The notes beneath the pieces are model-generated. The model was given only the letters and a program-made list of their open reading frames with translations, was not told where the DNA came from and did not search any database. Of a stretch of 64,000 nucleotides of DNA, positions 7,301-46,700 are shown piece by piece. The translations under genes were made by a program, and so were the position numbers. Source of the DNA: Periplaneta americana (Eukaryota > Arthropoda > Insecta > Blattodea > Blattidae); contig NC_091122.1 of assembly GCF_040183065.1 (NCBI RefSeq), positions 158,931,455 through 158,995,454 of the forward strand. The letters are read 5' to 3'. Positions within the stretch are counted from its first letter, which is position 1. Every line of letters begins with the position of its first letter.

Positions 7301-10300
7301 CACGAGTTATACGAGCAACTTTAAGACTGAAACTACAGAATATTATTATGTGAGCTATGATCTACAGTGGACTATAGTGGACTTTATGTTGTCAGCAAAC
7401 AGCTGGATACATTAAGAAGATTGATGTGAGCTTTGTTATGAAGGTACCTAAAGCCTCACTGTTGTAAACCTTTTCTTGGAAATACAACAATAAAAAGAAA
7501 CACGCTGGTGGACAGTTGTTCCTCATGCAAGTACTCAAGGGTACGAATTAAGATTTCTGAGGAGGGGGGGGATAGAATCCTAGATAGAGAATATCATACA
7601 TAAAATTATTTGATATGGATAAACGCTTGGTCGCACTGAGTTGCTGCATAATGATAATAATAATAATTATATCCATAAGCAGGCTTAAGATAAGATGAGT
7701 AATTCCTAAATTATTGATTGTTGTCAGCTTGCTGGTGATGATAATACATCAGTATTATTTTCTTTGCTTACCGGTACTTTATATTGTACTTTATAAAATA
7801 TACTCGTATTAAAACAATTATATTCTGTGAAGGGGGGACAGAAGTTATCCCTGGCAGGGATGAAAATATAAATTTATGAGACGGGGATAACTTTCAAAAA
7901 AGGGGAAATTCCCCCATGCCCCCTGTTAATTCGCACTCTGACTAAAAATATGAAGTCTCCAACTTAAATACGGAAAGTTGGCAGTTATAAAAAAGGTGAG
8001 AGGAAGAAGAGTACAAGTCAGTAAGTCTCAACACCCTTGAACAATCATGACAACAAGAACCAATCTCGGTTAATGTGGTCATCCTGCTGTAAGTTTGTTT
8101 TAGATAGGAGCCTTGTCCTCAATAAAGGTAATTTGCTGTAACTTAGGTTACTAGTCAACAACTGGGAGAAAAGAACTGCCACTCTATCCCATTATCTCCT
8201 GGTGTGGTTGTCTCATGAGTGATGGTGAGTGATGCTTTACACATGCACGCACGCACGCACGCACACACCACCCATACACCCACACGCTCCCTACCCCGAC
8301 CCCCACCCCGACACCCACACACCCCACCCCCACACACCCGATCCCCACTCACAACCACCCCTACACACCAACCCCACACACACTACCCCACCCCCTCACC
8401 CACACGCCCCATCCCCACCCCCACACAGACACACACTCCATGCTCACTCACTCACACAAACATCAAACTTGACAGTGAAATTGCAAAACTTGTAAATAGG
8501 ATAGTGAAAGTGAAGTTTTGATAATTTTTAAATTATAATTTAGTGTGTTTCTATTCTTATTGTTGGGTTTGGTAATTTGTAATTATATTTTAAGATGACT
8601 ATTACACTTTTACTACTTCACACTACTTTCGACCAATAAAATGGTACGAAAGGACGTCTTTCAATCAATCATGGCTGCTTATCACACAATTTTATCGCGT
8701 CCCTAGCATTTGTTTAATTTTATCGCGTCCCTAGCATTTGTTTATTTTTATCACTACCCTAGCATTTGTTTCTTTGTTTGCCAATATTTCAAACTGCACT
8801 GGTCTGGACGTAAAAAAAACAGAAAATTACAAACCACTCCAGTCGATGCACAGCACTTTCAAATATGACTCGCATCGGCATTCAAGAACAAGAATTAATA
8901 AAGATATATGAAGAGCACCATTCGGAAATCCTGAATGAGTTGAGGGATTCACCATGTACATCAACGAGTTCACTTCTTTTACGCACACGTCCAATATAAC
9001 ATCAACTGAACCACCAACCACTAAAACATTCAAATTTGAAAATTGTACTTTCAATAATTGTTTCTTTTAAAATTATTCATGTTTATTTTTTATTTCATCA
9101 TTGTTAATTAAAACGTTTCTTGTTTATTTCATCATCCCTAATTAAAACTTTTCTAACACTTGTTTATATTATTTAGGTTATGTTTGTTATAGCTTCTGCT
9201 ATATTATATTATGGATAGTCATGTATCAGAGATTGTTTAATACTAAGATTTATTGAAAATCATCTGTCAAGTGACGTTGATTATTGGGATCCGGATGATT
9301 GAAGTGAAATGCAAATGTTTTAATAAAAATGAAACTGAATCAACAAAGCCTTCATGACTAGTAACAGTCCACAGAGTTCAATGATGATTCCATAGTTGGC
9401 ACAACTGATACTGGTAACAAGAAAACATAATCATAAAATACTACTGCCATCTAGCGTAATGTTGAGATGGTACAATAATACATTTGAAGCATAGACAAAT
9501 AAATAGAGATTAGAAGACAGTTGTATTTTCGTAAGCCAATTAATATTTTATTGTATTGGAGTACTTTGTTACTTCTAATCTTTATATACTTTCTTCTAAT
9601 CGTGTAATAGTCAATTAAATCCCACTCGAGTTTTGATTTTCTCTAGATAAATCTGCTCGTGTTCCACTCGCAGATTTATCGATAAAATCAAAACCTCTAG
9701 TGAGATTACTGTTGACTATTACACTCTTACTACGTCATACTACTTTTGACCAATAAAACGGCACGAAAGGACGTAATTCAACCAATCATGGCTGCTTATC
9801 GTACAATTTTATCACGTCCCTAGCATTTGTTTAATTTTATCGCGTCCCTAGCATTTGTTTAATTTTATCACGTCCCTAGCATTTGTTTCTTTGTTTGCCA
9901 ACATTTGAAACTGCGCTGGTCTGGACATCAAAAATATATATAAAATTACAAACCACTCCAGTCGATGCACAGCAGTTTCAAATATGACTCGCATTGGCAT
10001 TCAAGAACAAGAATTAATAAAAATCACTGAGCATACCTATGCATCTTCTGAAATCCCATTTACAAATAAATGAAGAGCACTATTCGGAAATCCTGAATAA
10101 GTTGAATACACCATGTAGGCCTAAATCAACGAGTTCCACTTCTATTACGCACACGTCCAATATAACATCAATTGAACCACCAACCATATTCAAATTTGAA
10201 AATTGTACATTCAATAATTATTCCTTTTAAAATTATTCATTCGGAAATTCTGAATAAGTTGAATACACCATGTAGGCCTAAATCAACGAGTTCCACTTCT

Positions 10301-13300
10301 ATTATGCACACGTCCAATATAACATCAATTGAACCACCAACCACATTCAAATTTGAAAATTGTACATTCAATAATTATTCCTTTTAAAATTATTCATTCG
10401 GAAATTCTGAATAAGTTGAATACACCATGTAGGCCTAAATCAACGAGTTCCACTTCTATTATGCACACGTCCAATATAACATCAATTGAACCACCAACCA
10501 CATTCAAATTTGAAAATTGTACATTCAATAATTATTCCTTTTAAAATTATTCATTCGGAAATTCTGAATAAGTTGAATACACCATGTAGGCCTAAATCAA
10601 CGAGTTCCACTTCTATTATGCACACGTCCAATATAACATCAATTGAACCACCAACCACATTCAAATTTGAAAATTGTACATTCAATAATTATTCCTTTTA
10701 AAATTATTCATTCGGAAATTCTGAATAAGTTGAATACACCATGTAGGCCTAAATCAACGAGTTCCACTTCTATTACGCACACATCCAATATAACATCAAT
10801 TGAACCACCAACCACATTCAAATTTGAAAATTGTAACTTCAATAATTATTCCTTTTAAAATTATTCATGTTTATTTTTTATGTCATCGTCGTTAATTAAA
10901 ACTTTTCTAACACTTGTGTATATTAGTTAGGTTATGTTATAGCTTCTGCTCTGAGAGGATAAAAAGAACTTCTGCTATATGATATTATGGATAGTCACGT
11001 ATCAGAGATTGTTTAATATTAAGATTTATTGAATAGTAATCATTACAGTGTCTGTATCTGTCTGTATGAAGACACTACTGCTATCTAGCATGCATCTAGC
11101 ATCTGCTCGTGTTCCACTCGCAGATTTATCGATAAAATCAAAACGTCTAGTGAGATTACTGTTGATTATATTCTAATTGTATGTGTAATTTATAAAACTG
11201 ATACTGTGGAACTATGTCCATGTCCTTAATGTCTTTTGATCTATCTGTGTAACTTATTGGTATATTATCTTTATCCTTTTGTGTGTTTATTGCTTATTGA
11301 ATTGAAATCTGTAACTAGGAAAATGTTGTTGTTGTCTAATGCCAGACATTTGACAATAAAGTCATTTGACCTCTTGCACTCCAATATTTTTCAAAGATAT
11401 TATCATGACTAGCCACTGAAGCACAGATTTTGAGGTGTTCCGAATCCATTTCTTGGTTTGAGTTGCACAATGGGGAGTTAGGGGACTGATATATTCCAAT
11501 TCTATGCAGGTGTTTGGCCAAACAGTCATGGCCTGTTGCCAATCTAAATGCAGCTACAGACGATTTTCGTGGTAAATCGGGAATTAACTGTGGATTTTGA
11601 TGCAGAGAGTTCCATTTTTTCCCTTGGGATTGAGTTATCAAATTTTGTTTGTTGAAGTCTAAGTATGTAGATTTAATAAATCTCTTCACAGAGTAATACG
11701 TAGATTTAGTAACAGGTCTGTAAGTAGCAGTGCTGCCCTTCTTTGCTAAAGCATCCGCATTCTCGTTTCCCAGGATTCCACAATGGGATGGTATCCATTG
11801 GAATACAATTCTTTTATTGAGTGATAATAATTGAGAGAGCATTTTAGTTATTTCTGCTGTTTGAGATGAAGGTGTGTGTTTAGAGACGATTCATGGAATA
11901 GCTGCTTTGGAGTCTGACAATATAACTGTGTTCCTAAATTTATTGATGTGGCATAGAAGATTCCTGAGACATTCACTTATTGCAATGATTTCTCCATCAA
12001 AGCTTGCTGTTCCATATCCAAGAGATCTACAAAGTGAGAAGAGACAGCACATAACACCTGCACCGGCACCTTGTTCTCTGGAGATCAAGGATCCGTCGGT
12101 GTATAAATGAAGCCAGTTTTGTGGAGGGTACCTAATATTAATTGTCTCTAAAGACAATTGTTTCAGTATTTCAGTGTTTACTTCTGATTTCAGTATTTCT
12201 TCTGTAGGAAAATGTAGGAGTGATATATACGTAAATTATTATTTAAAATTGTAACTAGGGAAACATAGGGTCTTATAATCTTGAATTAATAATGCTAATG
12301 TAATTTGTAAGTTTGTAAGTAGGAAGGTGTAAGGATTCATAATTTGGAATGGTATTGAACTATAATTTTATTGTCATCGTATATCTTATCACACAGATAT
12401 TTATTGATTACACAACTGGTAAATTTGCAATCTTAAAAATGTAATTATCTAGAAATGTCAAAACATGTAATATTACAACCTATGTAATGGAGCATGTTGA
12501 AATATATACTGTAAAAAAAAAAAAAATACTCCACCCCTACACACAGACAAACATGACAGCCCGCCTGCCCATCCACCCACATACCCACACATAAATGTAA
12601 CTTACCAATTGGTGACTTCCTAAGCAAATCAGATGGAGAAGAGCTAGCAGATGATGTAGGTGTGATATGCCTCGGCCTCACAGGACTCGTAGCAGCACTA
12701 ACAGGGGTGGTAACAGTTCTTTGTATTGCCTGGTATTTCTGTTGCCTGTTGTATACAGTTGATGGTCGTATGGTCTCCATTGATCTCGTAGGAGACAAAC
12801 GAATTATTGGTGGTCTAGTACCACACTGGCTGTCATCAATAGTTAGTGAAGGCAGTTCCTATTGAAAATGAATACCATATTTATTTACGAAATTAATCCT
12901 AAACATATTTCTGTCAAATGTGTACATTGGATGGGTACACCACACGATCCTATAATTTTGGAAGTGGAAGTCTCATTGTCCAAACAAAAAAAAAAAGAGA
13001 AAACTCCCTAAAATAGGAAAGTATCAATGGCTCTCAATACTTCTAAGCATGGATGGTATTGAGGTATCGTGGACTCAACTATAATTTTTAATTATATTAC
13101 TAAAAGAATTTTAACAATTTCTTATTATACAGTACACCAATATAATTTCCCACTACAATAGGAACTAAATAAAGAAGTTTTATATCCATTTGAATTACAC
13201 CTTTCAACGTGCTTAGTTTATTTTCTTCTATGTCTAATAAACAGTGAACTCTTATGCCCAATCATTTCTGGCTGTTTTCTTTTTTGTAGCTTGTTGCTTA

Positions 13301-15043
13301 ACGATGCTGTATCAACTACAGTGCGTCAAGCTCAGGCTCAAACTTGGGTTGGCCCATGTAGGCAGATGTGCAGAATCACAATGGGTGGAGAGTGGATGAC
13401 TCACTTCAAGGACACGCAGCATGGCCTTAATGTGAGTCACCCACTCTTCACCCCCTGTGATTCTGCACATCAGCCTGCCAAAGGCAGCTGGATAAACACC
13501 GTGACCTACTACAATGCACATGGAACATGCATACAAGCTATCGTCAGCCCAAGTCTACACTGGACGCACTGTACTAGGTTGTTTATCGTCAATGAGAAGG
13601 TAATAACAAGATGCTATTAGGGGAGATGAGGTCAAAGATTCATCTGAGATTACCTGACATTCAACTTATAGTTTGAGGAAACCTTCCATAAACAATCAAG
13701 TACAGTAGAATCCTAGCATGCAGGCTTTCACGGCCGGTGTCTAGTTGAAATGGAGCTTTCGGGCTAAGATGCCGTGGTCTACTGGTGCAGATTTTACCAG
13801 ACGTTTCTTCTACTACTGCAGCAGACATCTTCAGTGGTTAGGTATCCTCGGTCGAAGTCTTCCGCTCGGGATACCTGCTACAGGTATCCCGAGCGGAAGA
13901 CTTCGACCGAGGATACCTAACCACTGAAGATGTCTGCTGCAGTAGTAGAAGAAACGTCTGGTAAAATCTGCACCAGTAGACCACGGCATCTTAGCCCGAA
14001 AGCTCCGTTTCAAACAGTAGAATCCCTCTTATCCAGTACCAAAGGGACCAGGCTAGTTCCAGATACGAGATTTTGCCAGATAATTAAATAAATACCGGTG
14101 TATAAAAAAAGAAAGTTCGTATTTCATAATGCCAAATGTTGAAACTGCAACCATGTGAAGCTTATTTCTCTATCACTTGCTCATAACTGAATAAACATAA
14201 AAACTGTGTGGATTTTCTTTATTAAAATGCATCACACAACACAAAACATACACTAATTTTAGGTTCGAATATTTACGAAAACTAAAGTTTGTGCGAACTT
14301 CCTAATACGGCAACACTCAGCCCGAACATAATTAAATAAACATAACTGTGTGGATTTTCTTTATTAAAACGCATCACACAACACAAATAATACACTAATT
14401 TTACGTTCGAATATTTACTGAAAACGAAAGTTCGCGCGAACTTTCTAATGTGGCAAAACTGACGCTCAGACTGTTGCAATGTGGCAGATTTAAACATTTT
14501 TTTTGCACCAAGCAGGAATCGAACCCATGTTTGAGTGCAGGTCCAGAATGACAGGCAAATGCACTACGTTATTTCCTGAGCTATCCCAGTGGCTGTGTTT
14601 TCAAATTAAGTAATTCTCTAATAGAAAATAGTACTGAACCAAAAATTGTTGTACCATTATCACAATGGTGGTCAAGAAGAAAACCAATTAAACTAATGAT
14701 GTAATAATACTTAAGTAAAAGTTCTAAAACCAAAGTTTCAGTGTAACTAATAAACACAAGCAAAAGTCTCTAGTATTTCAGGGAAATAAACTGTCTCTAC
14801 AGACTGCCAAAAATGTTTTTTTCCGAAACATTTCTGTCTGCTATTAGTATTAGTCGTTTCCTTGCGCCATTTCTTTTTGGCATCCCATTATAAGTAATTC
14901 AGAAATTTCTTTTCCACTATCAAAATTTTTGTATATCAGAAGATATTATTAGTAGAAGGTATGATAAAAACGTATATTTTAGTCAAATACTTCTACATAA
15001 ACTTTTCGAACTACTACAATAATTCCTATATACATGTTAAGGG

Positions 15044-18600: not shown

Positions 18601-21600
18601 CATTGTGGATTCCATAACTTCCTGCAGTTTTTCCTCGAGATCAGCAAGCACTTCCTCAGGCAGGACTTCTTCTACAAAATTAATAACAAGAATCCTCGAT
18701 AATCAAACATTGTAGTCATTTTGCAAAAACATCTGGCAATCGTGTATTTCAATTAAAAAACAAACACATCAATATAATAATTCTTAAGGGTCACAAAGTT
18801 TGAATACCTTCATCAGATCCTTCCTCATCAGAATCTGTGAGGACAACCGTGTCATTCCGAGGCTGGAATTTGACTGTCAACAATGGTTTGTGTTCTGAGA
18901 GAACGTAAGACAAATGCTGGAAATAAAATAAAAAAAGACACCTGCATATTACATGCAAAAATTAAAAAATGATTTAGCACAAGAACACTATTGTACACAA
19001 TACCATCAATGGAAGTATAATATGTGTGTCCATACAGGGGTGTGCATAAGTAGGTATCCAGTAATACAATATAGTTTTATTAAGTACAAATGAGGATTAC
19101 CACTTACCGTTACAATCAATGTGACCAATCGGCAACATCAATTTAACTGCCTGATCAATCCGTGATCGATTCTAATCCTCATTTGTACTTAATAAAACTA
19201 TATTGTATTACTATATACCTAATTACTTATGTACCACCTTGTAGTAGGTATACGTAACTTTTAACGAAGTTAAACATTGAATCCACCATAATTTAAGTCA
19301 TAAAGGCAAAATAAATTTCTTCACATTTCTAACTAATGCTTATACACAGCAGTACCCAATCCGCGAAATGTTTTTTCACGAATTTCTGCTAATTGAGTGA
19401 GAGAGTTAAAAATATTTATAGGTATGAATGAGACTCTGTCTGTAGACACGTTTTACGATGGCAGTTTGTTGCGAACTTTGCTCGTTTTTTTGCAAATTTG
19501 GCAATTTTTTACATTAAAAGCAATTTTTATGAATATCAATGAATCGTACATTCATCGCTCACGAAATTCCATTATTTTATTTCCGACAATGAAACATTCA
19601 AAATAAGTACGAAAATGGGTTTAATATTTTATCATGTAGAAAGCATGGCTGCTCAGAATCTTGAATCTCTTTATATAAAACATTTCAGACTAAATTTTTA
19701 ATGTTAAATTCAAATGAAGATTACAGCGGAAAAGGAAAGTCATAATTCTCATAAGGGTGATGCCACCATATAATTCAGTATAATACTGCAAAATTTATGG
19801 CTGTTCCTAATGAAAAAGTAGGAAAGAATGACTGTATCTGTGATAATAAATCTCCTTTAACAGTTTTGATAATAAAAACATTTCTAGTTTGCAGTAAATA
19901 TACTGAAGTAGATGATGACCTCACCCTTAAGAGAATTGCAACTTTCATTGTTTTTCCTGTGTACTCTTCAAATATGTAAAAGGGTTATTGTCAAACACAG
20001 GAAGGAGACCCATTAATTGCCCATATTGAGGACTTAATGGAACCGGCCTGAACAATAACCTAGTGTCCAATCCCTACCTTCTCGTGGTGCAGCTGTTACC
20101 ATTTTGCTTATGCAGAATGAATTAATGGGATGGGCTACCCACCAAACAGCACTGGTCAGCTTGGTGGGCTTATGACTGAGACTGATCCTTTTTCTATTCT
20201 AGTATCAGCCTCCCTTTTCTTTCATTTTGCTCTTTCCTATCCAGCCTCCCTTGGCTAACTCTTGTTCTTTTCGACTCTGATGGTATTACAGCACTTGGAG
20301 ATCATTTCTTCTATCCTTTTCCTCTATATCTATCAATACTTAATAAACCCTCGTAGGTACTCACCTAGTGATGGTGAGGTAGCTTCTATCCTTTAGATAT
20401 GTTATGTTTATTTAACGACGCTCACAACTGCAGAGGTTATATCAGCATCACCGAATGTGCCGGAATTTTGTCCCGCAGGAGTTCTTTTACATGCCAGTAA
20501 ATCTACTGACATGAGCCTGTCGCATTTAAGCACACTTAAATGCCATCGACCTGGCCAGGGATCGAACCCGCAACCTTGGGCATAGAAGGCCAGCGCTATA
20601 CCAACTCGCCAACCAGCTCGACAATCCTTTAGATTGAGTTAATAAATAATCAAGAGGTACCTACATAAGCTGTAAAAACATCTACTACAGCCCCACTCTT
20701 TTTCACTAACAATGATGGCTGATCTCAATGTAAAGTGTTCCGGAGATAAAATAGTCCCTCGATTGGATCTCCGGGTAGGGACTACACTAGAGAAACTAAA
20801 AACTATATTTTAAAACATGTCATAACAGACACAAATTTAGCCTATTCTACAAAAAGCAATTAATATACTATTCTAGCACAACATCAGCAGACATTATTTT
20901 ACAAAATTCATTACCCAGTACAAAGAATGCACAAGCCATTTTATGAATTTCTCAATACAAAATTATTATTTAATATATACATCTTGATTACACAACTTTT
21001 AACACTGTATCACTTCGGAATATGTATGGTAAGACTTTCCTGTGTTAAATTTCAATGTACCTCTTTTACATGTTTCGACCTATTTATGGGTCATTTTCAG
21101 AACTGGTCGTTGTAGGTCTTGGCTCCACTTGTTCTGTTTCTTGTGAGGGTGTGTTCCTGTGGTATAGTGTACATCACACTAACATACGAAAACAAAAACA
21201 CACACAAAATTGCAACCTCATTCAAGAAATTAAATTACAACATCACATACAGAACAAATAACACTCTATAAAAACATCTCAACAACACAAACAAACAAAT
21301 ACAACCACACAGGCGTATACAAACTCAAATGTAACACCTGCAACAACTTCTACATAGGACAGACAGGCAGATCATTTCAAACACGTTACAAAGAACACAT
21401 CACAGCCATAACAAAATTACAAAACACCTCCACATATTATGCAGAACACATCACAAATGCTAACCACACACAGAGAGACATCAACACAGACATGGAAATA
21501 CTACACATCCAACCAAAAAGCCAGAAACTAAACACACTAGAATAATATGAAATATACAGACACACAAAAACACACCCCAAACGAAATTCTCAACACACAA

Positions 21601-23974
21601 CTCAACTTCAAAACACACACACTCTTTGACTCTACACTATACCACAGGAACACACCCTCACAGGAAACAGAACAAGTGGCGCCAAGACCAACAACGACCA
21701 GTTCTGAAGATGACCCATAAATAGGTCGAAACATGTGAACGAGGTACGTTGAAATTTAACACAGGAAAGTCTTACCATACATATTCCGAATATTATTTAA
21801 TATTCAGGAAAATGCTTTTAATTATGAATAAGTAGGCCTACTGTCACAAGTTATCAAGAGATAAAAACTTTATTAATAACACGTTATTAACAACTTTATC
21901 TCTTAAAATGTATATCAGTCATGCAGAGAAATACAGTCATATGAAAAAGGCCAGACTGAACTGCCTGAAGATAGAATTTGTCTGCGACAATCAATGCTCT
22001 TTATATTACTTGACAATCAACAATACCATGTAGTTGCTATCTGTGCACTAATTATCTATTACTCTTAAACACTGTTATTACTGTACGTACCTCTTGATGC
22101 TCCATAGCTTTTTCAAAACAAGCCTGACACACCTTCTCTGCCTTCCCCTTTTTGTATTTACGACCATAATAAGTTAGAACAAACACAGGGGCACTCCTCA
22201 ATTCTTGTCCAGGAGGAGATGCACACTCAATATTGCAACAATTCACACCTTTTGGTGCGTTTGATTTACTCTTCTTTCTCTTCTTTATGGTCTCAATTTC
22301 TATGTCGTCATCATCATCATCTAGATCAATAATAATTTCTTGGGTTTTCTTTCTCGTCTCTCCTTGAATCACAACCTCTGGACTACTATCACGGTTACTA
22401 CTCTTATCAGTTCCTTTCTTTCTTTCAATCATTACAATCTCATCATCGTCGTCGTCATCATCAATGACCATAGGAGAATCGATATTGGTGGCATTAACGT
22501 CAACGAAGTTAATCTGGTAAGTATCTGGCTCATCAACATCCATTTCATCCTCATCATCTTCTTTTGACTGTGATTTCCTTTTACCATCATCTGACTGTTT
22601 GTCAGAGGAGTCTTTGTCTTCATCATCTTTATCATCTACGGATTCAGTTGCATCCGATGTTTTAGTAAGTTCACTTTCTTTCTTATTACTGGATGTATCA
22701 TCTTCCTTCTTATCATTGGATGCATCATCTTCCTTCTTATCACTGGATGCATCATCTTCCTTTTTATCATTGGATGCATCATCTTCCTTCTTATCACTGG
22801 ATACATCATCTTCCTTCTTATCAATGGATGCGTCATCTTCCTTCTTATCACTAGATGCATCATCTTCCTTCTTATCATCAGATTCATCAGTTTCCTTTGT
22901 CTCCTTCATTTCACTGTCCTCAATATTTGAATCTTTTACTTTATCATTATCCATTTCATCAGCATCTTTTTCACTGTCCTCTCCATCTTCCTTTTTTTCT
23001 TTTTCAGTATCTTCATTCTTCTCTCTTTTAATATCTTCATTTTTCTCTTTTTTAATACTGGTACCTTCATTATTTTCTTTATCAATGCGTAAGTCATTTT
23101 CCTTCTTTTTTATGTCATGAACTTCTAAAATATCATCATCTGTTTCACTACTACTTGATTCATCCTTCTTTGTTTCATCACTGATCTCCATGTCATTCTT
23201 CTGTTCGGTTTCTTTAATTTCTATGTCTTCCTTCTCTTCGTTGTCACTCACGTCTAAATCTTCCACCTTTTTACTGTCACCTTCAACACATTCGTTCTCT
23301 TCCTTATCACTAATTTTTGTGTCTTCAATATTTTCAATATTACCTTCCACACATTCTTCTCCTCTTTGGTCAGTAACATCAAAACTCTCTTTTCCTTTAC
23401 TAATTTCTCTGTCACCCTCATTCTTTTCTTCGTCATTTCTTTCTTTACAGTCCTCCCTTTCAATGAATAAGTCATCACTTTCTTCCTTTTCTTTATTTTC
23501 CATTATTTCACTTTCTCGTTTATTGCTATCTATTTTTGATAATTCTTCCTTTCCCTCAATATATTCTTTATTTTCTGAAATCAAATCATTCTTTATCTCC
23601 GATTTTTCTTCACAGTCCTCATCCGAGATAACTTCATCTACTTCCATCACAGCATCACCACTTTCGCTGCATCTGTTGGTTTTGTTTTCTTTTTCTTTTT
23701 CTTCTTCTTCTTCTTCTTCTTCTTCATCATTTTTGATGTTGCTTTCAGTTTTATTTTTATTATTCAATTCACATAATTTATCTACAGTGTCACTGTCTAC
23801 TGAGCATTTGTTCTCCTTATTATCAACACCGATATGCTCAGATTGAGATTCGTTATTATCCACAGAAACAGGAGACTTATCAGTGCCTAGTTGTAGGGCT
23901 GACAATTCTAAAACAACATCATCCTTTTTTCCAGACTCTGTCTTTTCGGCATCAGTGTCATTATCACATTCCAT
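2423..23974 (-). CDS. Seven-exon gene: acidic, zinc-like, coiled-coil protein resembling the SETDB1/eggless N-terminus
   Basis: Seven exons splice in frame with matching phases: 23974-22091, 18916-18808, 18671-18528, 15278-15181, 12858-12606, 6515-6445 and 4339-2423, giving 1,491 residues. Residues 1-570 are very acidic with a Glu run and 9-residue KKEDDASSD-type repeats. Residues ~578-628 form a Cys-rich segment (CCNIEC, then VCQAC) and are followed by TVVLTDSDEEGSDE. Residues ~667-744 are a predicted coiled coil, and ~745-1491 are Ser/Gln/Asn-rich with a basic patch RPSKRQRRKQ. From family knowledge, the Cys-rich, DSDEE and coiled-coil order resembles insect SETDB1/eggless N-termini, which act in H3K9 methylation in the nucleus. 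No Tudor, MBD or SET domain is seen. A GC-type donor (CAG|GCATGT) sits just before the stop, so the catalytic half could lie left of base 1. ATG 23974 directly follows an acceptor, so an upstream non-coding exon is expected. Exon structure is well supported; identity is moderate, and an ATF7IP-type partner protein is an alternative. Confidence 0.62.
4643..6087. repeat. Large foldback element (~1.45 kb, imperfect inverted arms)
   Basis: The outer arms at ~4643-4695 and ~6036-6087 are inverted copies (CTGACCAGCACAAAAACACA on the left; CTGGTACAAAAACGCAACAC when the right arm is reversed). Inner arms at ~5030-5400 and ~5700-5965 are also inverted copies, sharing an unusual TTTTCGATTTGT-GCAACAATTAAA block. 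The left arm has an extra insert at ~4735-5010. No transposase ORF is visible. It lies in the intron between exons 6 and 7. Confidence 0.6.
6445..6515 (-). CDS. Exon 6 of the SETDB1-N-like gene (71 bp)
   Basis: The acceptor is CTTCTCAG|CAGGTG and the donor is GAAATG|GTAAGT. The one base carried from exon 5 plus CA restores the frame, giving IAGVATKKVTQIQRSVFP and ending TSNSEM in phase 0. Both splice sites are strong and the phases match on both sides. Confidence 0.72.
7538..7945. repeat. Possible MITE with short G-rich inverted ends
   Basis: The left end AGGGTACGAATTAA matches the reversed right end AGAGTGCGAATTAA, and G-run/C-run tracts sit just inside both ends. The rest of 6516-8150 has no recognisable gene. 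Support is limited to the end match. Confidence 0.35.
8240..8460. repeat. C/A-rich simple-sequence tract
   Basis: Long run of CACGCA, CCCCAC and CACACA motifs on the plus strand. Open frames here on either strand are pure consequences of the repeat. Confidence 0.9.
9603..9727. repeat. Inverted repeat ending GTGTAATAGTCAA / TTGACTATTACAC
   Basis: The two halves are near-complementary: GTGTAATAGTCAA at the left and TTGACTATTACAC at the right, with inner arms around AAATCTGCTCG...CGCAGATTTAT. It may be a small foldback transposon or the shared end of the flanking satellite-like blocks. Confidence 0.6.
10076..10862 (+). repeat. 157-bp tandem array (five units)
   Basis: Five head-to-tail units with an exact 157-bp period; each contains TTCGGAAATTCTGAATAAGT and a downstream ACGTCCAATATAACATCAAT block. 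Inner units differ by only a few substitutions. A single diverged unit is present in the neighbouring block near 8905-9065, so the array expanded locally. Confidence 0.92.
11330..12209 (-). mobile_element. LINE fragment: RNase H domain and 3' end of ORF2 (broken)
   Basis: On the minus strand it encodes an RNase H-type region (NWLHLYTDGS, ILSDSKAA, WIPSHCGILGNENAD) followed by a C-terminal IPDLPRKSSVAAFRLATGHD and a C-x2-C...H-type segment (PLCNSNQEMDSEHLKIC). These features are typical of I/Jockey/R1-group LINEs. The frame breaks near 11880. It is nearly the same sequence as 47510-48395 but in the opposite orientation, and it is 5'-truncated. Confidence 0.85.
12240..12533 (+). other. AT-rich stretch ending in a poly(A) run
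   Basis: Non-coding sequence ending with 14 A at 12513-12526. It looks like the 3' end of a retrotransposed sequence on the plus strand, but I cannot name the family. Confidence 0.3.
12606..12858 (-). CDS. Exon 5 of the SETDB1-N-like gene (Pro/Ser/Thr-rich linker)
   Basis: The acceptor is TTTTCAATAG|GAACTG and the donor is CCAATTG|GTAAGT, phase 0 to phase 1. It encodes ELPSLTIDDSQ, then a Ser/Thr/Pro/Arg-rich, probably disordered linker with several S/T-P sites (LSPTRS, TTPV, ATSPV, ITPTSS). Confidence 0.78.
13287..13600. repeat. Foldback MITE (~300 bp)
   Basis: The outer arms pair (ACTACAGTGCGTC on the left; TAGTACAGTGCGTCC when the right arm is reversed). The inner arms GTGCAGAATCACA...GACTCAC and GTGAGTCACC...TGTGATTCTGCAC are nearly perfect over ~37 bases. 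The complementary arms explain the open frames on both strands. Confidence 0.7.
13717..14012. mobile_element. Near-perfect palindrome, probable Penelope-like terminal repeat pair
   Basis: Arms at ~13747-13877 and ~13881-14011 are almost perfectly complementary around a 3-base centre; I noticed only a substitution and a one-base indel at the outer edge. The left side extends into GCTTTCACGGCCGGTGTC. Each arm, read outward, carries CTGAAGA, a short hairpin and GAAAC (13924-13955 on plus, mirrored on minus). That is the conserved core order of hammerhead ribozymes reported in Penelope-like elements. No reverse transcriptase is present. Assignment to Penelope-like elements is inference from this core and from the similar element at 21016-21789. 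Confidence 0.6.
13915..13968 (+). ncRNA. Hammerhead-ribozyme-like core (right arm of palindrome)
   Basis: CTGAAGA at 13924-13930 fits the CUGANGA core. It is followed by a hairpin TCTGCT/AGTAGA with one wobble, then GAAAC at 13951-13955, then GTCTGGT...ACCAG that can form a third helix. I could not confirm the cleavage-site base or helix I by eye. Confidence 0.4.
14180..14466 (+). repeat. Two-copy 142-bp tandem duplication
   Basis: The segment with CTGTGTGGATTTTCTTTATT and TTCGAATATTTAC recurs with a 142-bp offset and a few substitutions. No gene. Confidence 0.75.
14500..14592 (-). repeat. tRNA-derived SINE head
   Basis: On the minus strand there is a box-A-like ATAGCTCAGG and a box-B-like GGTTCGATTCC with ~50 bases between them, longer than a normal tRNA. 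It is therefore read as a SINE remnant rather than a tRNA gene. Confidence 0.55.
15037..15073. repeat. Poly(A) tract
   Basis: Run of more than 30 A in the intron between exons 4 and 5; possibly a retroelement tail, with no recognisable body. Confidence 0.8.
15181..15278 (-). CDS. Exon 4 of the SETDB1-N-like gene (coiled coil, part 2)
   Basis: The acceptor is TGTGTCTTAG|TTGC and the donor is AAATTCGG|GTTAGT, phase 1 to phase 0. It encodes FKETDNLLNELQRKMDNI followed by a V-Y-K-D-Y-A-P-K-I-R segment. The end resembles the stretch that closes the coiled coil in SETDB1 N-termini, from family knowledge. Confidence 0.8.
15460..15620. repeat. (TA)n and (AAT)n microsatellites
   Basis: A TA dinucleotide run near 15463-15504 is followed by an AAT trinucleotide run near 15553-15619. 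Confidence 0.95.
15984..17200 (+). mobile_element. RTE-type LINE fragment (reverse transcriptase, multiply broken)
   Basis: Frames in sequence encode an RT palm: EEQFGFRK, VFVDLEKAFDRMDW, a GVQQGCPLSP turn, then IRFADDMALLADEE near 16408. A C-terminal stretch typical of insect endonuclease-reverse transcriptases follows (MKINANKTKTM, VKYLGC-like, RNWLGHWLRRN). Several in-frame stops and frameshifts break it. It ends at 17200 in a GAATGAATGAATG tail and is 5'-truncated. The fragment at 51722-52055 belongs to the same family. Confidence 0.85.
17433..17535 (+). repeat. SINE family 1, 3' fragment
   Basis: ACTCATTTCACTGGCATTAT and the following TCACCTTCATCTCA segment match the 3' body of the SINEs at 28471 and 53952. 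The tRNA-like head is missing. Confidence 0.7.
17765..18335. mobile_element. TIR repeat with adjacent hairpin (copy 1)
   Basis: Inverted ends TTTTTATGCTCGACCAT (17765-17781) and its complement (18218-18234) bound a ~470-bp segment. It is followed directly by a hairpin: TAATGGTAATTAAGACGC pairs with the later GCGTCTTAATTACTATCATT. The same arrangement, reversed, is at 49920-50590. There is no coding capacity. It looks like a MITE, superfamily unknown. Confidence 0.65.
18528..18671 (-). CDS. Exon 3 of the SETDB1-N-like gene (coiled coil, part 1)
   Basis: The acceptor is ATTTTGTAG|AAGAAG and the donor is TTAAGTG|GTAAGT, phase 1 to phase 1. It encodes a helical segment beginning EEVLPEEVLADLEEKLQEV and ending NKMDELS. 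Heptad-like Leu/Val/Ile spacing indicates a coiled coil that continues in the next exon. Confidence 0.82.
18808..18916 (-). CDS. Exon 2 of the SETDB1-N-like gene
   Basis: The acceptor is TTTATTTCCAG|CATTTG and the donor is GATGAAG|GTATTC, with phase 0 in and phase 1 out. It encodes HLSYVLSEHKPLL, then a P-R-N-D-T-V segment, then LTDSDEEGSDE. Joined to exon 1 it gives CFEKAMEHQE-HLSYVLSEH. It looks like a continuation of the Cys-rich module followed by an acidic SIM-like/DSDEE motif. Confidence 0.82.
19048..19234. repeat. Foldback MITE (~187 bp)
   Basis: Arms of ~50 bases (AATACAATATAGTTTTATTA, and its complement near 19195) flank a ~70-base centre. Nearly perfect complementarity suggests recent origin. 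Confidence 0.75.
20399..20623 (-). repeat. SINE family 2, copy 1 (tRNA-derived)
   Basis: Minus-strand head: box-A-like TTGGCGAGTTGGTATAGCGC and box-B-like GGTTCGATCC; the body ends in a short AT-rich 3' end near 20399. Direct repeats ATCCTTTAGAT at 20388-20398 and 20624-20634 are its target-site duplication. Confidence 0.85.
21312..21545 (+). pseudogene. GIY-YIG endonuclease domain of a Penelope-like element
   Basis: The frame reads GVYKLKCNTCNNFYIGQTGR followed by SF-x-TRYKEH, then continues to a TAA at 21543-21545. It shows the GVYKL (GIY) and FYIGQTGR (YIG) motifs, the conserved Arg and the EH pair. The C-x2-C before the YIG motif matches the zinc-like pair seen in Penelope endonucleases. 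The reverse-transcriptase part and start are absent. Confidence 0.85.
21700..21756 (+). ncRNA. Hammerhead-ribozyme-like core in Penelope terminal repeat
   Basis: CTGAAGA (21704-21710), then the helix GACC/GGTC with loop CATAAATA, then GAAAC (21728-21732), then ATGTG...TACGT that can pair. The mirrored left arm has CTGAAAA instead of CTGAAGA and is probably inactive. Helix I and the cleavage base are not resolved by eye. Confidence 0.5.
22091..23974 (-). CDS. Exon 1 (coding) of the SETDB1-N-like gene: acidic domain and Cys-rich segment
   Basis: The acceptor is CTCATTTACAG|ATG and the donor is CAAGAG|GTACGT, ending in phase 0 after 628 codons. It carries a Glu run (near residue 85), the KKEDDASSD repeats (near residues 365-433), acidic clusters such as IIIDLDDDDDDIEIE, a KKRKKSK basic patch and the CCNIEC...CQAC cysteines. 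Reading beyond the donor adds only 12 residues before a stop, which supports splicing. Confidence 0.8.
22676..22885 (-). repeat. 27-bp coding minisatellite inside the acidic domain
   Basis: About seven in-frame copies of a 27-bp unit encode variants of DKKEDDASS. Copies differ mainly at the last Ser/Asn/Ile positions, so the array expands by whole codons without breaking the frame. Copy number is likely variable between individuals (inference). Confidence 0.85.
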
Positions 23975-24423
23975 CTGTAAATGAGAAAAAAAAAAAGTAT
24001 ATTCTCAAATTAATGTGAGAGTTTTGTATGCAGTGAACATTAAACATTCAAACAACAAAATCTTTCCTATGTTAAACTTTTGAAGGAATGGGAGTACAAT
24101 CACTGAAATGAAAAAGGAAATACAATATATGAAGCAGTTGAAAAACTAATAAACATTGTCAAGAAAGAATGTGATTTTTAGGTGGAGTCGAGCACAGTTT
24201 GTTGGCATTGAGGAGTGAAAACATAACAGAGAGGTTGGTTTTGTATTTATCTACCATTGCATCAGCACTCAAAACCCTAGCCCAAACACAGAGATGGAAA
24301 TGATGTTTGATCAGTTGGCTTCTGTTACTATCTGCTTCTTGTACTGTATTAGAATATGGTGTCAGCGTTGTGCTGTGTTAAATTGCATGTTGTTAACATC
24401 CTGTGACATATTGTAGGTCTATA

Positions 24424-40700: not shown

Positions 40701-43700
40701 ATTAGGAATAAATTAGCACATAAATTTAAAAATACAAGACAGAAGAGTGTAAAACAAATGATAAGATGATTAAATACAATTGAAGAAGAGGAAATGAACT
40801 TGAGCAGAAATGATCAACAATGAACTGAAGTGTGTAAGTGTGAAATAGTAATATGTGTTACAAGAGCAGTATGTTGAAGTTTTCATGTTCGAGGAAAAGT
40901 TTGAAAAAGCGAAATGTAGTTGAGCTTTTTTAATTTCCGAGAATTGAAAGAAAACATACCGCTCGTGTATCGTACATTATTTTGTGCGAAGATCGTTTAT
41001 TACATACCTGAAAGAGGAATTTCTAATTAGTTGCAATGAAATCTCCATCTTGGTTTCTGGCCAATGACGGCAAATTTGCAAAACAAAAATATCTATCTTC
41101 AACATTGTTGCTTTAAAATGTTTTCTGTGTTTACTATACTCCAGCAGGCCATGATATACGTCTGTCTTTTTTTCCCCCAGTCTATAAATGCGAACTTAAA
41201 ACAAACGGTAAGGTTATATAATGATTTAGAGTTTACTTAATTTTTGCAAATATTTAAAAACAATAATTAACAGTGCAATGTAGATGAAATTGCAGTGGTA
41301 AGTTTCCAATTTATAATTATTACTATATTGAACGTCTCTAAAAATAATATGTTAAAAGCCAAAAGCAGTAAAATCAATATGTCACTTAAGCGGTAAGAAG
41401 AGGGAAATTGTTATGTGTGTTAGGTTGGGAATACTGAATGTGGAATTTTACACTTTCCGCAGATTGGTTTTGTGCGGAAACCAAGCAAATACGCACGATC
41501 TCGCACAAAATATTTAAGTGATGGTGGACTGAAAAGTAGAAATGTAAAGGTCCATGATGACTAAAATTGTAAAGTTGTAAGTTGTCTGACAATAAATATC
41601 ATATCACATCATATCATAAAGATTTTTTAAACCACTATTCATCTTTGTTACAATACAGAATGATGGAAAGAAATGATTTGTCATTTATTAATGTAGTATA
41701 TCTAGACTGAAAATATTAAGACATAATTCTTTAAAGTTTAAACAAGTATTCTCTTGTGAACTCACCTCAGGACTTCCTGTATATGCACAAATTCACTTTT
41801 CTGAGACTTAGAAAATTCTAGCCGGCCATTTTTTTTGGGAATACTGTACCAGTACCTCGAATATGCAGTACATGTACGAGGGGGATCCAGGAAATAACGA
41901 CCATTTTGTTGTAATAATTAAAAAAAATATTTATTTGAAAAAACAAAGTCTGTTACATAACTGAAGCTTCCTTCACTTCTCTACATAATCACCACCTACA
42001 TTTAAACATTTGTCGTATCTGTTCACTAGCTTTAGAATTCCCGTGTTGTACTCCTCTGCTGCCAGTTCATTAAGCCAGGTGTTCACTGTCTTCTTCAACT
42101 CTTCATCACTTCCAAAACGCGTACCACCCAGAAAGTCTTTCAGCTTAGTGAAAAGGTGGAAATCGCTAGGAGCAAGGTCTGGACTATAGGGCGTACGATC
42201 AAAGATTTCCCAACCGAATTGATCCAGCAATTCTCGAGTTGAAGCAGCAGTGTGCGGGCGGGCGTTGTCGTGAAGAAGCACAACTCCTCTCGAAAGCATT
42301 CCTCGCCTCTTGTTTTGGATGGCTCGCCGTAGTTTTCGTAAAGTCTCACAATAACGATTTGAATTGATCGTAGTGCCTTTTGGCATGAAATCCAGCAAAA
42401 GAACACCTTTGCAATCCCAAAAGACAGTAGCCACGACTTTTTGTGTTGAGAGAGTCTGTTTGAATTTTCTCGGTTTTTTGGGTGATGAGGGATGATGCCA
42501 CTGACGTGATTGGCGCTTGGTCTCTGGGGTGTTGTGAGACACCCAGGTCTCATCACCAGTCACAATTTGATCAAGAAAGGCGTCTCCATCTGTGTGATAT
42601 CGCATCAAGAATGTCAATGCTGAGGCCATTCTCTGAGTTTTGTGTTGGTCACTCAGTTGCCGTGGAACCCATCGTGCACAGATTTTGTGGTAGCCAAGAT
42701 GTTGCGACACAATTTCACCAAGCAAAGAACGAGAAATGTCAGGAAAGGCAATATGCAATTCGTCGAGTGATGTGCGCCTGTCTTGCAAGATTCTATTGTT
42801 CACTTTAGTCTTCAGGTCTTCTGTGATGAGTGATGGGCGTCCGGGTCGAGTTTCATCGTGGACATTTGTTCGCCCATTGTTGAACATTTCGCACCATTTT
42901 CTCACATTTCTTTCATTCATTACAGTATCACCATACACTTCTTTCAATTGCCGGTAAATTTCTGCAAGTTTCAAATGTCGGGCATTCAAAAATCGAATCA
43001 CACTCCTCACCTCACAGTCGGCGGGATTATCAATCACGTCGTTCATTTTGAAGTAACACAAAATGCACAATGGCGACTTGTTGCAACCAGTACTCACAAC
43101 ATTATGAGAACACATGTTAAGGAAGCCAGTTGACCTTCAAACAAGAAAGGGGAGTCAGCTGTGCGGCAGGTATGCGCGAACGGTCGTCATTTCCTGGATC
43201 CCCCTCGTAACTTGTAAATACTTACAGTGTGATCTAGTATCATTCTCCACACAGTTGCTCAGTGTAACAGCCAAGAAAACATGATGTTTTGCATACAATT
43301 CTTCCAGTTCTTGAAGTCTGGCATCAGAAACAAAAATTGCACCTGTCGCCCATGCCTCACATAACCTCAGTGCTGTCCATACCATCTTGAAGGAATAAGA
43401 AGTGTACATTTTGTATTTTATTGTTTTCACTCACAAGATAGTTACTTTTCTATATAACTACAAATATTCTGATGCATACCTTTTTTAAGTAATAGATAAT
43501 TTAAAATACCAATGCATCAGTAAAGTATCCTGTCCAAATTCAACATCGCAAATTTCTAGCGCAATAATTAATAATAGATCCCTATTAGAAACAACAACAA
43601 CAACAACCAAATTTCTTGGCTTAAAAATCGATAGTGTGTTAAATTGGAAAAAGAATGTTAAGGAAATTACCCCCAAACTAAATTCAGCTTGTTTTGCTAT

Positions 43701-46700
43701 TAGATCTATGCAAAAGATAGTAAATATCAATACCTTAAAAACAATATACTTTGCATACTTCCACTCAGTAATGAGTTTTGGAATAATATTCTGGGGAAAT
43801 TCCACAGATAGTAACAATATATTTCTATTACAAAAAAGAGTAATTAGAATAACAGTAGGTGCCAAATCTAGGGAATCTTATAGGACTATTTTCAAAAAAC
43901 TACAAATAATGCCCATGGCTTGTCAGTATATCTTTTCATTAATAATCTTCCTCGTATGTAATCGTGAAAACTTTGTAACTAATTCAACAGTTCATAGCAT
44001 AAATACACGTCAAAAAAAATGACTTTCATACTCCATTGGCAAGTCTATCATGGTATCAAAAAGGAGTGTGTTATATGGCAGTAAAAATTTTTAATAGCCT
44101 CCCTATCGATATAAAAAATGAAACTCAAAACATAAAATTATTTAGGGCCAAATTAAAGAAGTACCTGATTTCTCACGCCTTCTATTCTTTAGGTGAATAC
44201 ATGACATTCAATAACACTTCATGAAATTGATACTAAAACTATGTGTTGTACTAGTAGACAATATTGTAAATCTCGTCTGTATATATTTCATCTAGACTGT
44301 GACTATAAATTAAGATTTTATACTAATATTAAGTTTTTTGACTTGTTCCATATTCTAGCTGTAAGCATGTATGAATACCATGGAATGTTAATAAATACAA
44401 TACAATACAATCAAGATGAAAAAACAAAGACAAAAAGAAGGTGCTTGTACACATACAAATAGGGTTTTGCAAGATCTAATGCATTTATCCTCATGTTGTT
44501 ATGTCACAGCACCTCTGAGTACAAATACAGAATTAAAATTTGCAGCGAGTCTTGAAGGGAGTCCATCTGTATGTAGGCAACAATTTCACACGACTGTTCA
44601 CAAGTAGCATATATAAAGGGGTTTGGTTTACTGCACATACACAGTATGTTGTAAGCAAAACTTATACAATAAAGAAGCTCCAAATTTTATTTCCATATTT
44701 GTACATGTGCTCAAAAAGCTGCAGCATGTGTGGACATTGTGCCACTGTCATACATCCATGACGCAGTACATGAGGGCGGCCACTAGAGGGAACCCAAGAG
44801 TTGGAACTTAATACTGAGACGATTCTTCCAACGCCGGGGTGGAATCCGGTGTGGCTTAGTGGATAAAGCGTCAGCACATACAGCTGAAAACCCGGGTTCA
44901 AATCCCGGCGCTGGAGAGAATTTTTCTCCGTTCCATTACTCTTTCATCGTATGATGACGCAGAATATCTGCATGGAAATATCATATGTACTTCGGTACAT
45001 TAAAATAATATATATGATATGCGTAAATCACATCGTGATTTAAGATGGCACTTATTCCGTCGGATCCCGGCCAACTAGTCACTCATTACGAGTGCACCTC
45101 AGCACATGTGTGGACTTCGGTCCTAGGTTCATAGATATCTATGATGTAGTGCAGAGGGCGGCCACTAGAGGGAACCCAAGAGTTGGAACTTAATACTAAG
45201 ACGATTCTTCCGACGCCGGGGTGGAATCCGGTGTGGCTTAGTGGATAAAGCATCAGCACGTAGAGCTGAAAACCCGGGTTCAAATCCCGGCGCCAGAGAG
45301 AATTATTCTCCGTTCCATTACTCTTTCATCGTATGATGACGCAGAATATCTGCATGGAAATATCGTATGTACTTCGGTAAATTAAAATAATATATATGAT
45401 ATGCGTAAATCACATCGTGATTTAAGACGGCGCTTATTCTGTCGGATCCCGGCCAACTAGTCACTCATTACGAGTGCACCTCAGCACATGTGTGGACTTC
45501 GGTCCTAGGTTCATAGATATCTATGACGTAGTGCAGAGGGCGGCCACTAGAGGGAACCCAAGAGTTGGAACTTAATACTGAGACGATTCTTCCGACGCCG
45601 GGGTGGAATCCGGTGTGGCTTAGTGGATAAAGCGTCAGCACGTAGAGCTGAAAACCCGGGTTCAAATCCCGGCGCCGGAGAGAATTTTTCTCCATTCCAT
45701 TACTCTTTCATCGTATGATGACGCAGAATATCTGCATGGAAATATCATATGTACTTCAGTACATTAAAATAATATATATGATTTAGAACATATAAATAAT
45801 GACATTTTGGTATCTCTTGTGGTTTAAAATATGATCGCATAAATGTAAAAAAAAACAGAACTGAAATAAATTAACATAGAAAGTATTTGCTGGAACTTCA
45901 AAAAAAAAAAAGTGTAAGTGTGAAAAACGTGTAACAGAAATGTATAAAAGAAGTTTTACTATAATTAAAATATGAAAATATCCCTTACCTGGAGAGTCGA
46001 CTGTTTTATGATTTCACAGCCTTCTGATTGTAAACAATGTGCATACACTGTTTGCACGTAACTATCGTGAGCTGCAACAAGATCAGAAAATTAGTCACAC
46101 AGGAACATGATGGAGAGAAATACAATTTGATTCCATACATACCTGCCACTCGCATGTGAGCACATTCAGCATCTCATGTACCATATATTCATAAATAAAC
46201 TTTGGAGTTTTAAGGTTATATAATTTCTTTCATCTGCGGTATAAAATAATAAACCATAAATGGGATAAAAAAACTTCAAATTTTTTTAGTTATTAGAACT
46301 CGCATTATAAGTTCTCAATGTGTACAGAATTTAAAAATTCTAAAGCTGCTCTTACATAATTAGGTCGTTACAACAATTTCTAAACAGCAGTATCTTAAAG
46401 ACAATATATTTTACCTATTTTCATTCCATTATGTCCTACGGAATAATATTTTGGGGAAATTTTGTAGACAGTAAAAATATATTCTTATTACAAAAAAGAG
46501 CCATTAGAATAATAGTTGGAGCAAAGGCTAGAGAATCATGTAGATTATTTTTAAAAAAATTAGAGATTCTAACCTTAACAAATCAATACATATACTCTAC
46601 AATAAATTTCCTCTTATGTAATAAAAAAAATTTTCCAACTAACTCAGCCATACATAGTATAAATACCCGCAGAAGGAATGATTTTCATACGCCATCATCA

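What the first reader, a model, noticed from the sequence alone, without database searches (positions are those of the whole stretch)
21016..21789. Penelope-like element: GIY-YIG endonuclease between inverted repeats carrying a hammerhead-type core
The 157-bp terminal repeats are inverted rather than direct, and between them lies only the GIY-YIG endonuclease tail with no reverse transcriptase. The right repeat keeps CTGAAGA, a 4-bp helix and GAAAC, while the left has CTGAAAA. A short unit with ribozyme ends and only a nuclease could be a non-autonomous Penelope derivative.
Basis: partly seen in the sequence, partly recalled or inferred. Interest (0 to 1): 0.72.

Follow-up and report, generated by a model that had tools for sequence, protein, structure and literature searches.

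The report
Truncated head-to-head Penelope retrotransposon copy
The inverted repeat is one of very many short, broken copies of a Penelope-type jumping gene in this genome, and comparing sampled copies suggests that such insertions usually start copying at two different fixed points, one at each end.

Summary
In detail: two 158-nt arms, 95.6% complementary, flank a GIY-YIG endonuclease remnant, and the right arm carries a hammerhead-type core. The reading as a special non-autonomous unit is not supported. The element is a 5'-truncated Penelope-like element (PLE) insertion, 20977-21790, bounded by a 13-nt duplication (20964-20976, 21791-21803). The genome search gave 2346 first-look candidates; all 40 scored match. 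In 28 of the 30 loci first fetched the element ends within about 440 nt of this copy's truncation point, at scattered positions; 15 of 30 carry an inverted piece. One relative carries reverse transcriptase. The hammerhead core is a family feature (6816 pattern matches, 0 reversed), with compensatory stem II changes. Here each arm has a damaging change, and Rfam scores it far below cutoff. Such inverted PLE structures are published. Worth keeping: in head-to-head copies one end is at the tail site and the other 37 nt away in 21 of 22 scorable pairs (2 more ambiguous), and in 13 of 14 pairs of a second sample (5 of these after allowing for indels; 1 unresolved). This favours paired initiation on both target strands.

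The parts
20964..20976 (.). left target-site duplication TATTATTTAATAT
   Evidence: exact 13-nt match to 21791-21803; 4 of 20000 shuffles of the flanks do as well
20977..21013 (-). 37-nt PLE tail on the left (inverted) arm
   Evidence: the same tail ends many other copies at or within 2-3 nt of the same base
21014..21171 (-). inverted pLTR arm with decayed hammerhead-type core (CTGAAAA)
21170..21171 (.). head-to-head junction: 2-nt overlap (microhomology) of the inverted arm and the sense part
   Evidence: gap -2
21172..21632 (+). 5'-truncated end of the PLE ORF with GIY-YIG endonuclease remnant; longest open frame 103 codons (21234-21545)
21633..21790 (+). 3' pLTR arm, ends at the no-tail site
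21692..21751 (+). hammerhead-like fold: long stem I with internal loop, short stem II, core CTGAAGA...GAAAC, no real stem III
   Evidence: MFE -17.8, z -3.0; Rfam 14.1 bits, below cutoff 34
21791..21803 (.). right target-site duplication

Best explanation
It is a dead, 5'-truncated copy of an endonuclease-bearing Penelope-like retrotransposon. The proposed formation: the PLE protein makes a staggered cut in an AT-rich target (13 nt). Both exposed 3' ends prime reverse transcription of element RNA at two fixed internal sites: the tail site for the left end, and a site 37 nt upstream on the RNA for the right end. The left cDNA stops within the pLTR (195 nt). The right cDNA runs through the pLTR and the end of the endonuclease ORF (about 620 nt). 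The two cDNA ends are joined head to head with 2 nt of microhomology, and filling the stagger gives the TSD. SHOWN here: TSD, tail, truncation, family membership, and unequal end sites in the sampled head-to-head copies. INFERRED: the order of events and that each target strand primes its own cDNA. The hammerhead is a family feature; in this copy neither arm keeps a complete standard core.
For: TSD and tail. 2346 first-look candidates, 40 scored, all 40 match, the window copy among them. In 28 of the 30 fetched loci the sense homology ends within about 440 nt of this point, at scattered positions. Relative L037 carries RT upstream: RVT_1 E=4.6e-10, 40 bits, cutoff 29.6. 24 head-to-head pairs in 70 loci; exact TSD of at least 10 nt in 17 of 24, against 7 of 552 at 9 nt or more with ends swapped between copies. 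Ends discordant for the tail in 21 of 22 scorable pairs; 1 of 200000 random pairings reaches this. Second sample: 13 of 14 fit, 8 directly and 5 after allowing for indels. Published: PAc cleaves and extends both strands and starts reverse transcription at two sites bounding the tail (PMC11167929, parts 1 and 2 of 4 and passages read); inverted pLTRs around 5'-truncated Penelope ORFs in Adineta vaga (PMC3846280, passages).
Against: PMC11167929 saw no difference in start site between the two strands in vitro, so pairing of sites is not predicted by it. One of 22 scorable pairs (L022) has the tail at both ends; L062 and L067 have an intermediate end and were left out. Seven of 24 pairs lack an exact TSD of 10 nt. 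L075 has an 8-nt repeat at distances that do not fit. Two of the 30 loci do not show plain truncation: L003 runs into Ns and L023 has further sense pieces upstream. The Pfam score of the endonuclease remnant is under the cutoff.
Confidence: 0.8

Rival explanations
1. Self-priming: one cDNA (or antisense RNA) folds back and primes its own copying, giving the inverted pLTR; this is the hypothesis of PMC3846280.
For: Inverted head-to-head arms with mostly short overlaps at the junction. Measured from the left arm, the partner arm differs less than the median other copy in all 22 scorable pairs. A 6-bp palindrome lies at the window junction (by eye).
Against: A fold-back copy should not end at a second fixed site 37 nt from the first in nearly all pairs. 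The tail is on the shorter arm in 16 of 21 pairs and on the longer in 5, so neither arm is always the primary one.
Confidence: 0.15
2. A non-autonomous short unit (ribozyme ends plus nuclease) that propagates as such.
For: L031 has nearly the same layout with its own 13-nt TSD. Eight loci of the junction-query set, besides the window copy, have a break at the same base.
Against: L031's junction differs (gap 3 against -2). Of those eight loci, L044 and L049 carry a TA-target DNA transposon inserted at that base, and L047 and L055 probably do, judged from one transposon end each. The junction query probably favoured such places. None of the 39 other places scored starts exactly there. The nuclease frame is broken.
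Confidence: 0.03
3. A longer PLE copy that lost its middle by deletion after insertion.
For: No reverse transcriptase was recognised between the arms.
Against: Scattered truncation points and TSDs are common in the family; a private deletion explains neither that nor the inverted arms.
Confidence: 0.02

Closest known systems
Penelope elements of Adineta vaga with inverted pLTRs (PMC3846280, passages)
   Same: 5'-truncated ORF between inverted pLTRs, optional 31-bp tail on one inverted pLTR, TSD in some copies
   Different: another PLE family in another animal; here the tail rule is counted over sampled copies
Poseidon PAc of Anolis carolinensis (PMC11167929, parts 1-2 and passages)
   Same: RT plus GIY-YIG endonuclease, hammerhead motif, tail between two RT start sites, AT-rich targets; the distance from the hammerhead cut to the RT start is 85-92 nt there (subtraction from the paper's numbers) and about 90 nt to the tail end here
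   Different: PAc is active in vitro; this copy is dead, and its ends are one of each kind
Minimal type I hammerhead motifs of PLEs (Cervera and De la Pena 2014, not held, seen only as cited in passages of PMC6155905 and PMC7229834)
   Same: conserved core, short stem II, stem III practically absent
   Different: this copy has G at position 17 on the right arm and A at position 8 on the left arm

Membership tests
Penelope-like element (endonuclease-bearing) | GIY-YIG endonuclease at the C-terminal end of the ORF | tested here: met
   Pfam GIY-YIG E=0.007 but below the curated cutoff; same motif and order in longer relatives, read by eye
Penelope-like element (endonuclease-bearing) | reverse transcriptase upstream in the same element | tested here: met
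   met for the family, not for this copy: relative L037 has RVT_1, 40 bits
Penelope-like element (endonuclease-bearing) | pLTRs, direct or inverted, with optional 30-40 nt tail | tested here: met
Penelope-like element (endonuclease-bearing) | 5' truncation and TSD in AT-rich DNA | tested here: met
Hammerhead ribozyme type I (RF00163) | match at Rfam's gathering score | tested here: not met
   14.1 bits against 34; relative L013 11.9 bits, so the model is insensitive to this family
Hammerhead ribozyme type I (RF00163) | complete core in this copy (G8, and A, C or U at position 17) | tested here: not met
   left arm A at 8, right arm G at 17 (numbering and the rule for position 17 recalled)
Hammerhead ribozyme type I (RF00163) | helices kept by compensatory changes in the family | tested here: met
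   one stem II pair left free: A-T 74, G-C 17, G-T 8, A-C 1 of the 100 listed of 6816 matches; other pairs not tested this way
Hammerhead ribozyme type I (RF00163) | self-cleavage | not testable with these tools
   needs an in vitro assay
Metazoan retrozyme | small tandem repeats with type I hammerhead, without a coding part | tested here: not met
   no second copy in the window and an ORF remnant present; definition from passages of PMC7229834
TIR DNA transposon / foldback element | TSD flush with both inverted termini | tested here: not met
   the left TSD lies 37 nt outside the inverted repeat

The most novel reading that the evidence does not exclude
In head-to-head PLE insertions the two target strands are primed in a coordinated way at two different fixed sites of the element RNA, about 37 nt apart, probably on the same RNA molecule, so that one end has the tail and the other does not. 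This would replace self-priming as the origin of the inverted pLTRs of Penelope elements.
Probability: 0.45. Interest if true: 0.6.

Novelty: new member of a known kind. Interest (0 to 1): 0.33.

Why it matters
The copy itself is ordinary and matters as a clear example. The genome holds thousands of matches to the PLE core, so both ends of many single insertions can be read. The near-exclusive pairing of tail and no-tail ends in the sampled pairs gives a direct test of how PLEs, a poorly understood retrotransposon class, make their second strand and their inverted repeats.

Tried and rejected
Propagating short unit: a query across the inner junction found one other place spanning it among the 40 candidates scored of 299 (L031). 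Breaks at the same base in eight loci of that query's set are probably an effect of the query: L044 and L049 have a TA-target DNA transposon there, L047 and L055 probably too (one end seen), and none of the other 39 places scored starts exactly there. Viral contigs: no match to a core pattern and no relative of the nuclease; prokaryote genomes: no relative. PDB: best E 0.37, the GIY-YIG intron endonuclease 1mk0, not significant. The Rfam model scores a copy with a complete core at only 11.9 bits, so a missed cutoff is weak evidence against the motif.

Same RNA for both arms: measured from the left arm, the partner differs less than the median other copy in all 22 scorable pairs; the only both-tail pair (L022) shares the fewest derived sites (1; the other 21 share 2 to 13). 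But the partner is often not the closest copy, and measured from the right arm L022 (25 of 37) and L036 (24 of 26) rank low. This is a hint only. The shorter arm has the tail in 16 of 21 pairs and, read by eye, in 9 of 14; together 25 of 35, two-sided p 0.017. That count includes the unresolved L075, and several arms differ little in length. One search also printed a probability for 35 of 36 discordant pairs; it counts L075 as fitting and I do not use it.

Full report
What is there. The inverted repeat is real: arms 21014-21171 and 21633-21790, 158 nt with 7 mismatches. Outside it, the 13-nt sequence TATTATTTAATAT lies directly right of the right arm (21791-21803) and again at 20964-20976, 37 nt left of the left arm. 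Shuffled flanks reach 13 nt in 4 of 20000 trials. Of 8972 placements of the same geometry along the window one reaches 13; it lies over the element itself, and the best elsewhere is 11. The insertion is therefore 20977-21790. The extra 37 nt on the left matches the tail known from Penelope elements: the same sequence ends many other copies in the genome at or within 2-3 nt of the same base.

Coding part. Between the arms lies the end of a PLE ORF with a GIY-YIG remnant (Pfam E=0.007, under the cutoff). The reading frame shifts and is stopped (read from the three frames). The longest open frame is 103 codons, while 12 of the 68 EN regions found in the 70 loci stay open over 145 codons or more. 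The TAA after LE is found in 21 of the 60 regions where that codon could be read, the window copy included, so it is not private. No reverse transcriptase was recognised in this copy. Relative L037 has one upstream of the same endonuclease part (RVT_1, 40 bits, cutoff 29.6), in a different frame because that copy is also broken.

Family. The genome (3.23 Gb, 91 contigs) gave 2346 first-look candidates, of which 40 were scored and all match, the window copy among them. The 40 are the best-scoring, not a random sample. In 28 of the 30 loci fetched first, the sense part ends within about 440 nt of the window's truncation point, at scattered places, a few of which coincide; L003 runs into Ns and L023 has further sense pieces upstream. 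Fifteen of the 30, the window copy included, have an inverted 3' piece upstream, of very different lengths. Such structures, including 5'-truncated copies between inverted pLTRs, are described for Adineta vaga Penelope elements (PMC3846280, passages), and inverted pLTRs and 3' extensions are mentioned in PMC8969392 (passages). The window copy is thus an ordinary member.

Hammerhead. The right arm folds as a long stem I with an internal loop and a short stem II around CTGAAGA and GAAAC (MFE -17.8, z -3.0, 3 of 200 shuffles as good). The left arm does not (z +0.36, 120 of 200 as good). The reverse complement of the right arm also folds fairly well (z -2.1) (all). The Rfam type I model gives 14.1 bits against a cutoff of 34, and 11.9 bits for L013, whose core is complete. 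In 45 arm segments from the first 30 loci position 17 is A in 38, G in 3 (window right arm, L009, L027), T in 3 and C in 1; position 8 is G in 42, A in 2 (window left arm, L025) and C in 1. By established hammerhead knowledge (recalled: cleavage follows A, C or U, not G) the right arm would be inactive; the left arm probably too, since a G8C change abolished cleavage in PAc (PMC11167929). In the whole genome the pattern CTGANGANGNCCN{2,12}GGNCGAAACATG matches 3381 + 3435 times; the reversed pattern matches 0 times. In the 100 matches listed, all on contig C1, the stem II pair left free by the pattern is A-T 74, G-C 17, G-T 8, A-C 1. These counts are not independent events, as the matches fall into a few families.

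Tail rule. Seventy loci were used: the 40 scored places and 30 stretches that cover 31 of the 41 other rows. They hold 24 head-to-head pairs. Twenty-two can be scored at both ends: 21 have one tail end and one no-tail end, 1 (L022) has two tail ends, none has two no-tail ends; L062 and L067 have an intermediate end and were left out. Random pairing of the same ends reaches 21 in 1 of 200000 trials. Exact TSDs of 10 nt or more are present in 17 of 24 pairs; with ends swapped between copies 7 of 552 reach 9 nt. Ends not found in such pairs are 29 tail and 21 no-tail (all).

I then wrote down a prediction and fetched the 14 adjacent minus-plus pairs among the 100 listed pattern matches, with at least three core types. 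No adjacent pair within 2 kb in that list had another strand order. In 8 of 14 the TSD lies 51-57 nt from the core on one side and 89-95 nt on the other. Four more (L074, L080, L081, L082) fit after allowing for indels visible in the arm alignment, and L073 fits after a deletion seen against the reference. L075 is unresolved: homology suggests one tail arm and one shorter arm, but no fitting TSD was found and an 8-nt repeat sits at 105 and 63 nt.

Mechanism. PAc protein cleaves and extends both target strands and starts reverse transcription at two sites that bound the tail (PMC11167929, parts 1 and 2 of 4, which hold the main text, and passages). From that paper's numbers the hammerhead cut lies 85-92 nt before the main start site; here the tail end lies about 90 nt and the no-tail end about 53 nt after the expected cut (my subtraction, cut after 21737). 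The simplest reading is that each strand of the target primes its own cDNA, one at each site, and that the two cDNAs are joined head to head (gaps of -4 to +9, mostly small overlaps). That paper reports no strand difference in start site, so the pairing is an additional regularity. PMC3846280 states that the tail is optionally present on one of the inverted pLTRs, so the fact is known in words. My searches listed no paper that by title or abstract start counts it, but only PMC3846280, PMC11167929 and PMC8969392 were opened for this, in part, and older Penelope papers are not held or were not opened. PMC3846280 favours self-priming for the inverted arms; two fixed outer sites speak against that, without excluding it.

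Verdict. Observation confirmed and extended; special non-autonomous unit not supported. The element is an ordinary truncated PLE copy, useful because its family shows an end-pairing rule that can be tested.

Noticed in passing
24 pairs in L001-L070; L071-L084: Head-to-head PLE copies nearly always have the tail at exactly one of their two outer ends (21 of 22 scorable; 13 of 14); the shorter arm carries it more often.
   Followed up: yes
L044 1360-2043, L049 1695-2048, L050 1391-1932; probably L047 and L055: TA-target DNA transposon insertions inside PLE copies; in L044 and L049, and probably L047 and L055, at the same TA of GTACATC.
   Followed up: partly
44754-45782: Tandem array of a 382-bp unit (2.7 copies) with three tRNA-Tyr genes, one of them with anticodon ata.
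   Followed up: no
13745-14013: Near-perfect 269-bp palindrome, 98% identical to its own reverse complement.
   Followed up: no
41875-43209 and 60546-61882: Two copies, 96.9% identical, of a 1.3-kb element with ORFs of 387 and 331 codons, mariner-like by eye.
   Followed up: no
22055-24004, minus strand: 650-codon acidic ORF with an internal array of 27-nt repeats, about 250 bp from the PLE insertion; no Pfam match at E up to 1.
   Followed up: no
10082-10868: Five tandem copies of a 157-bp unit, 98% matches.
   Followed up: no
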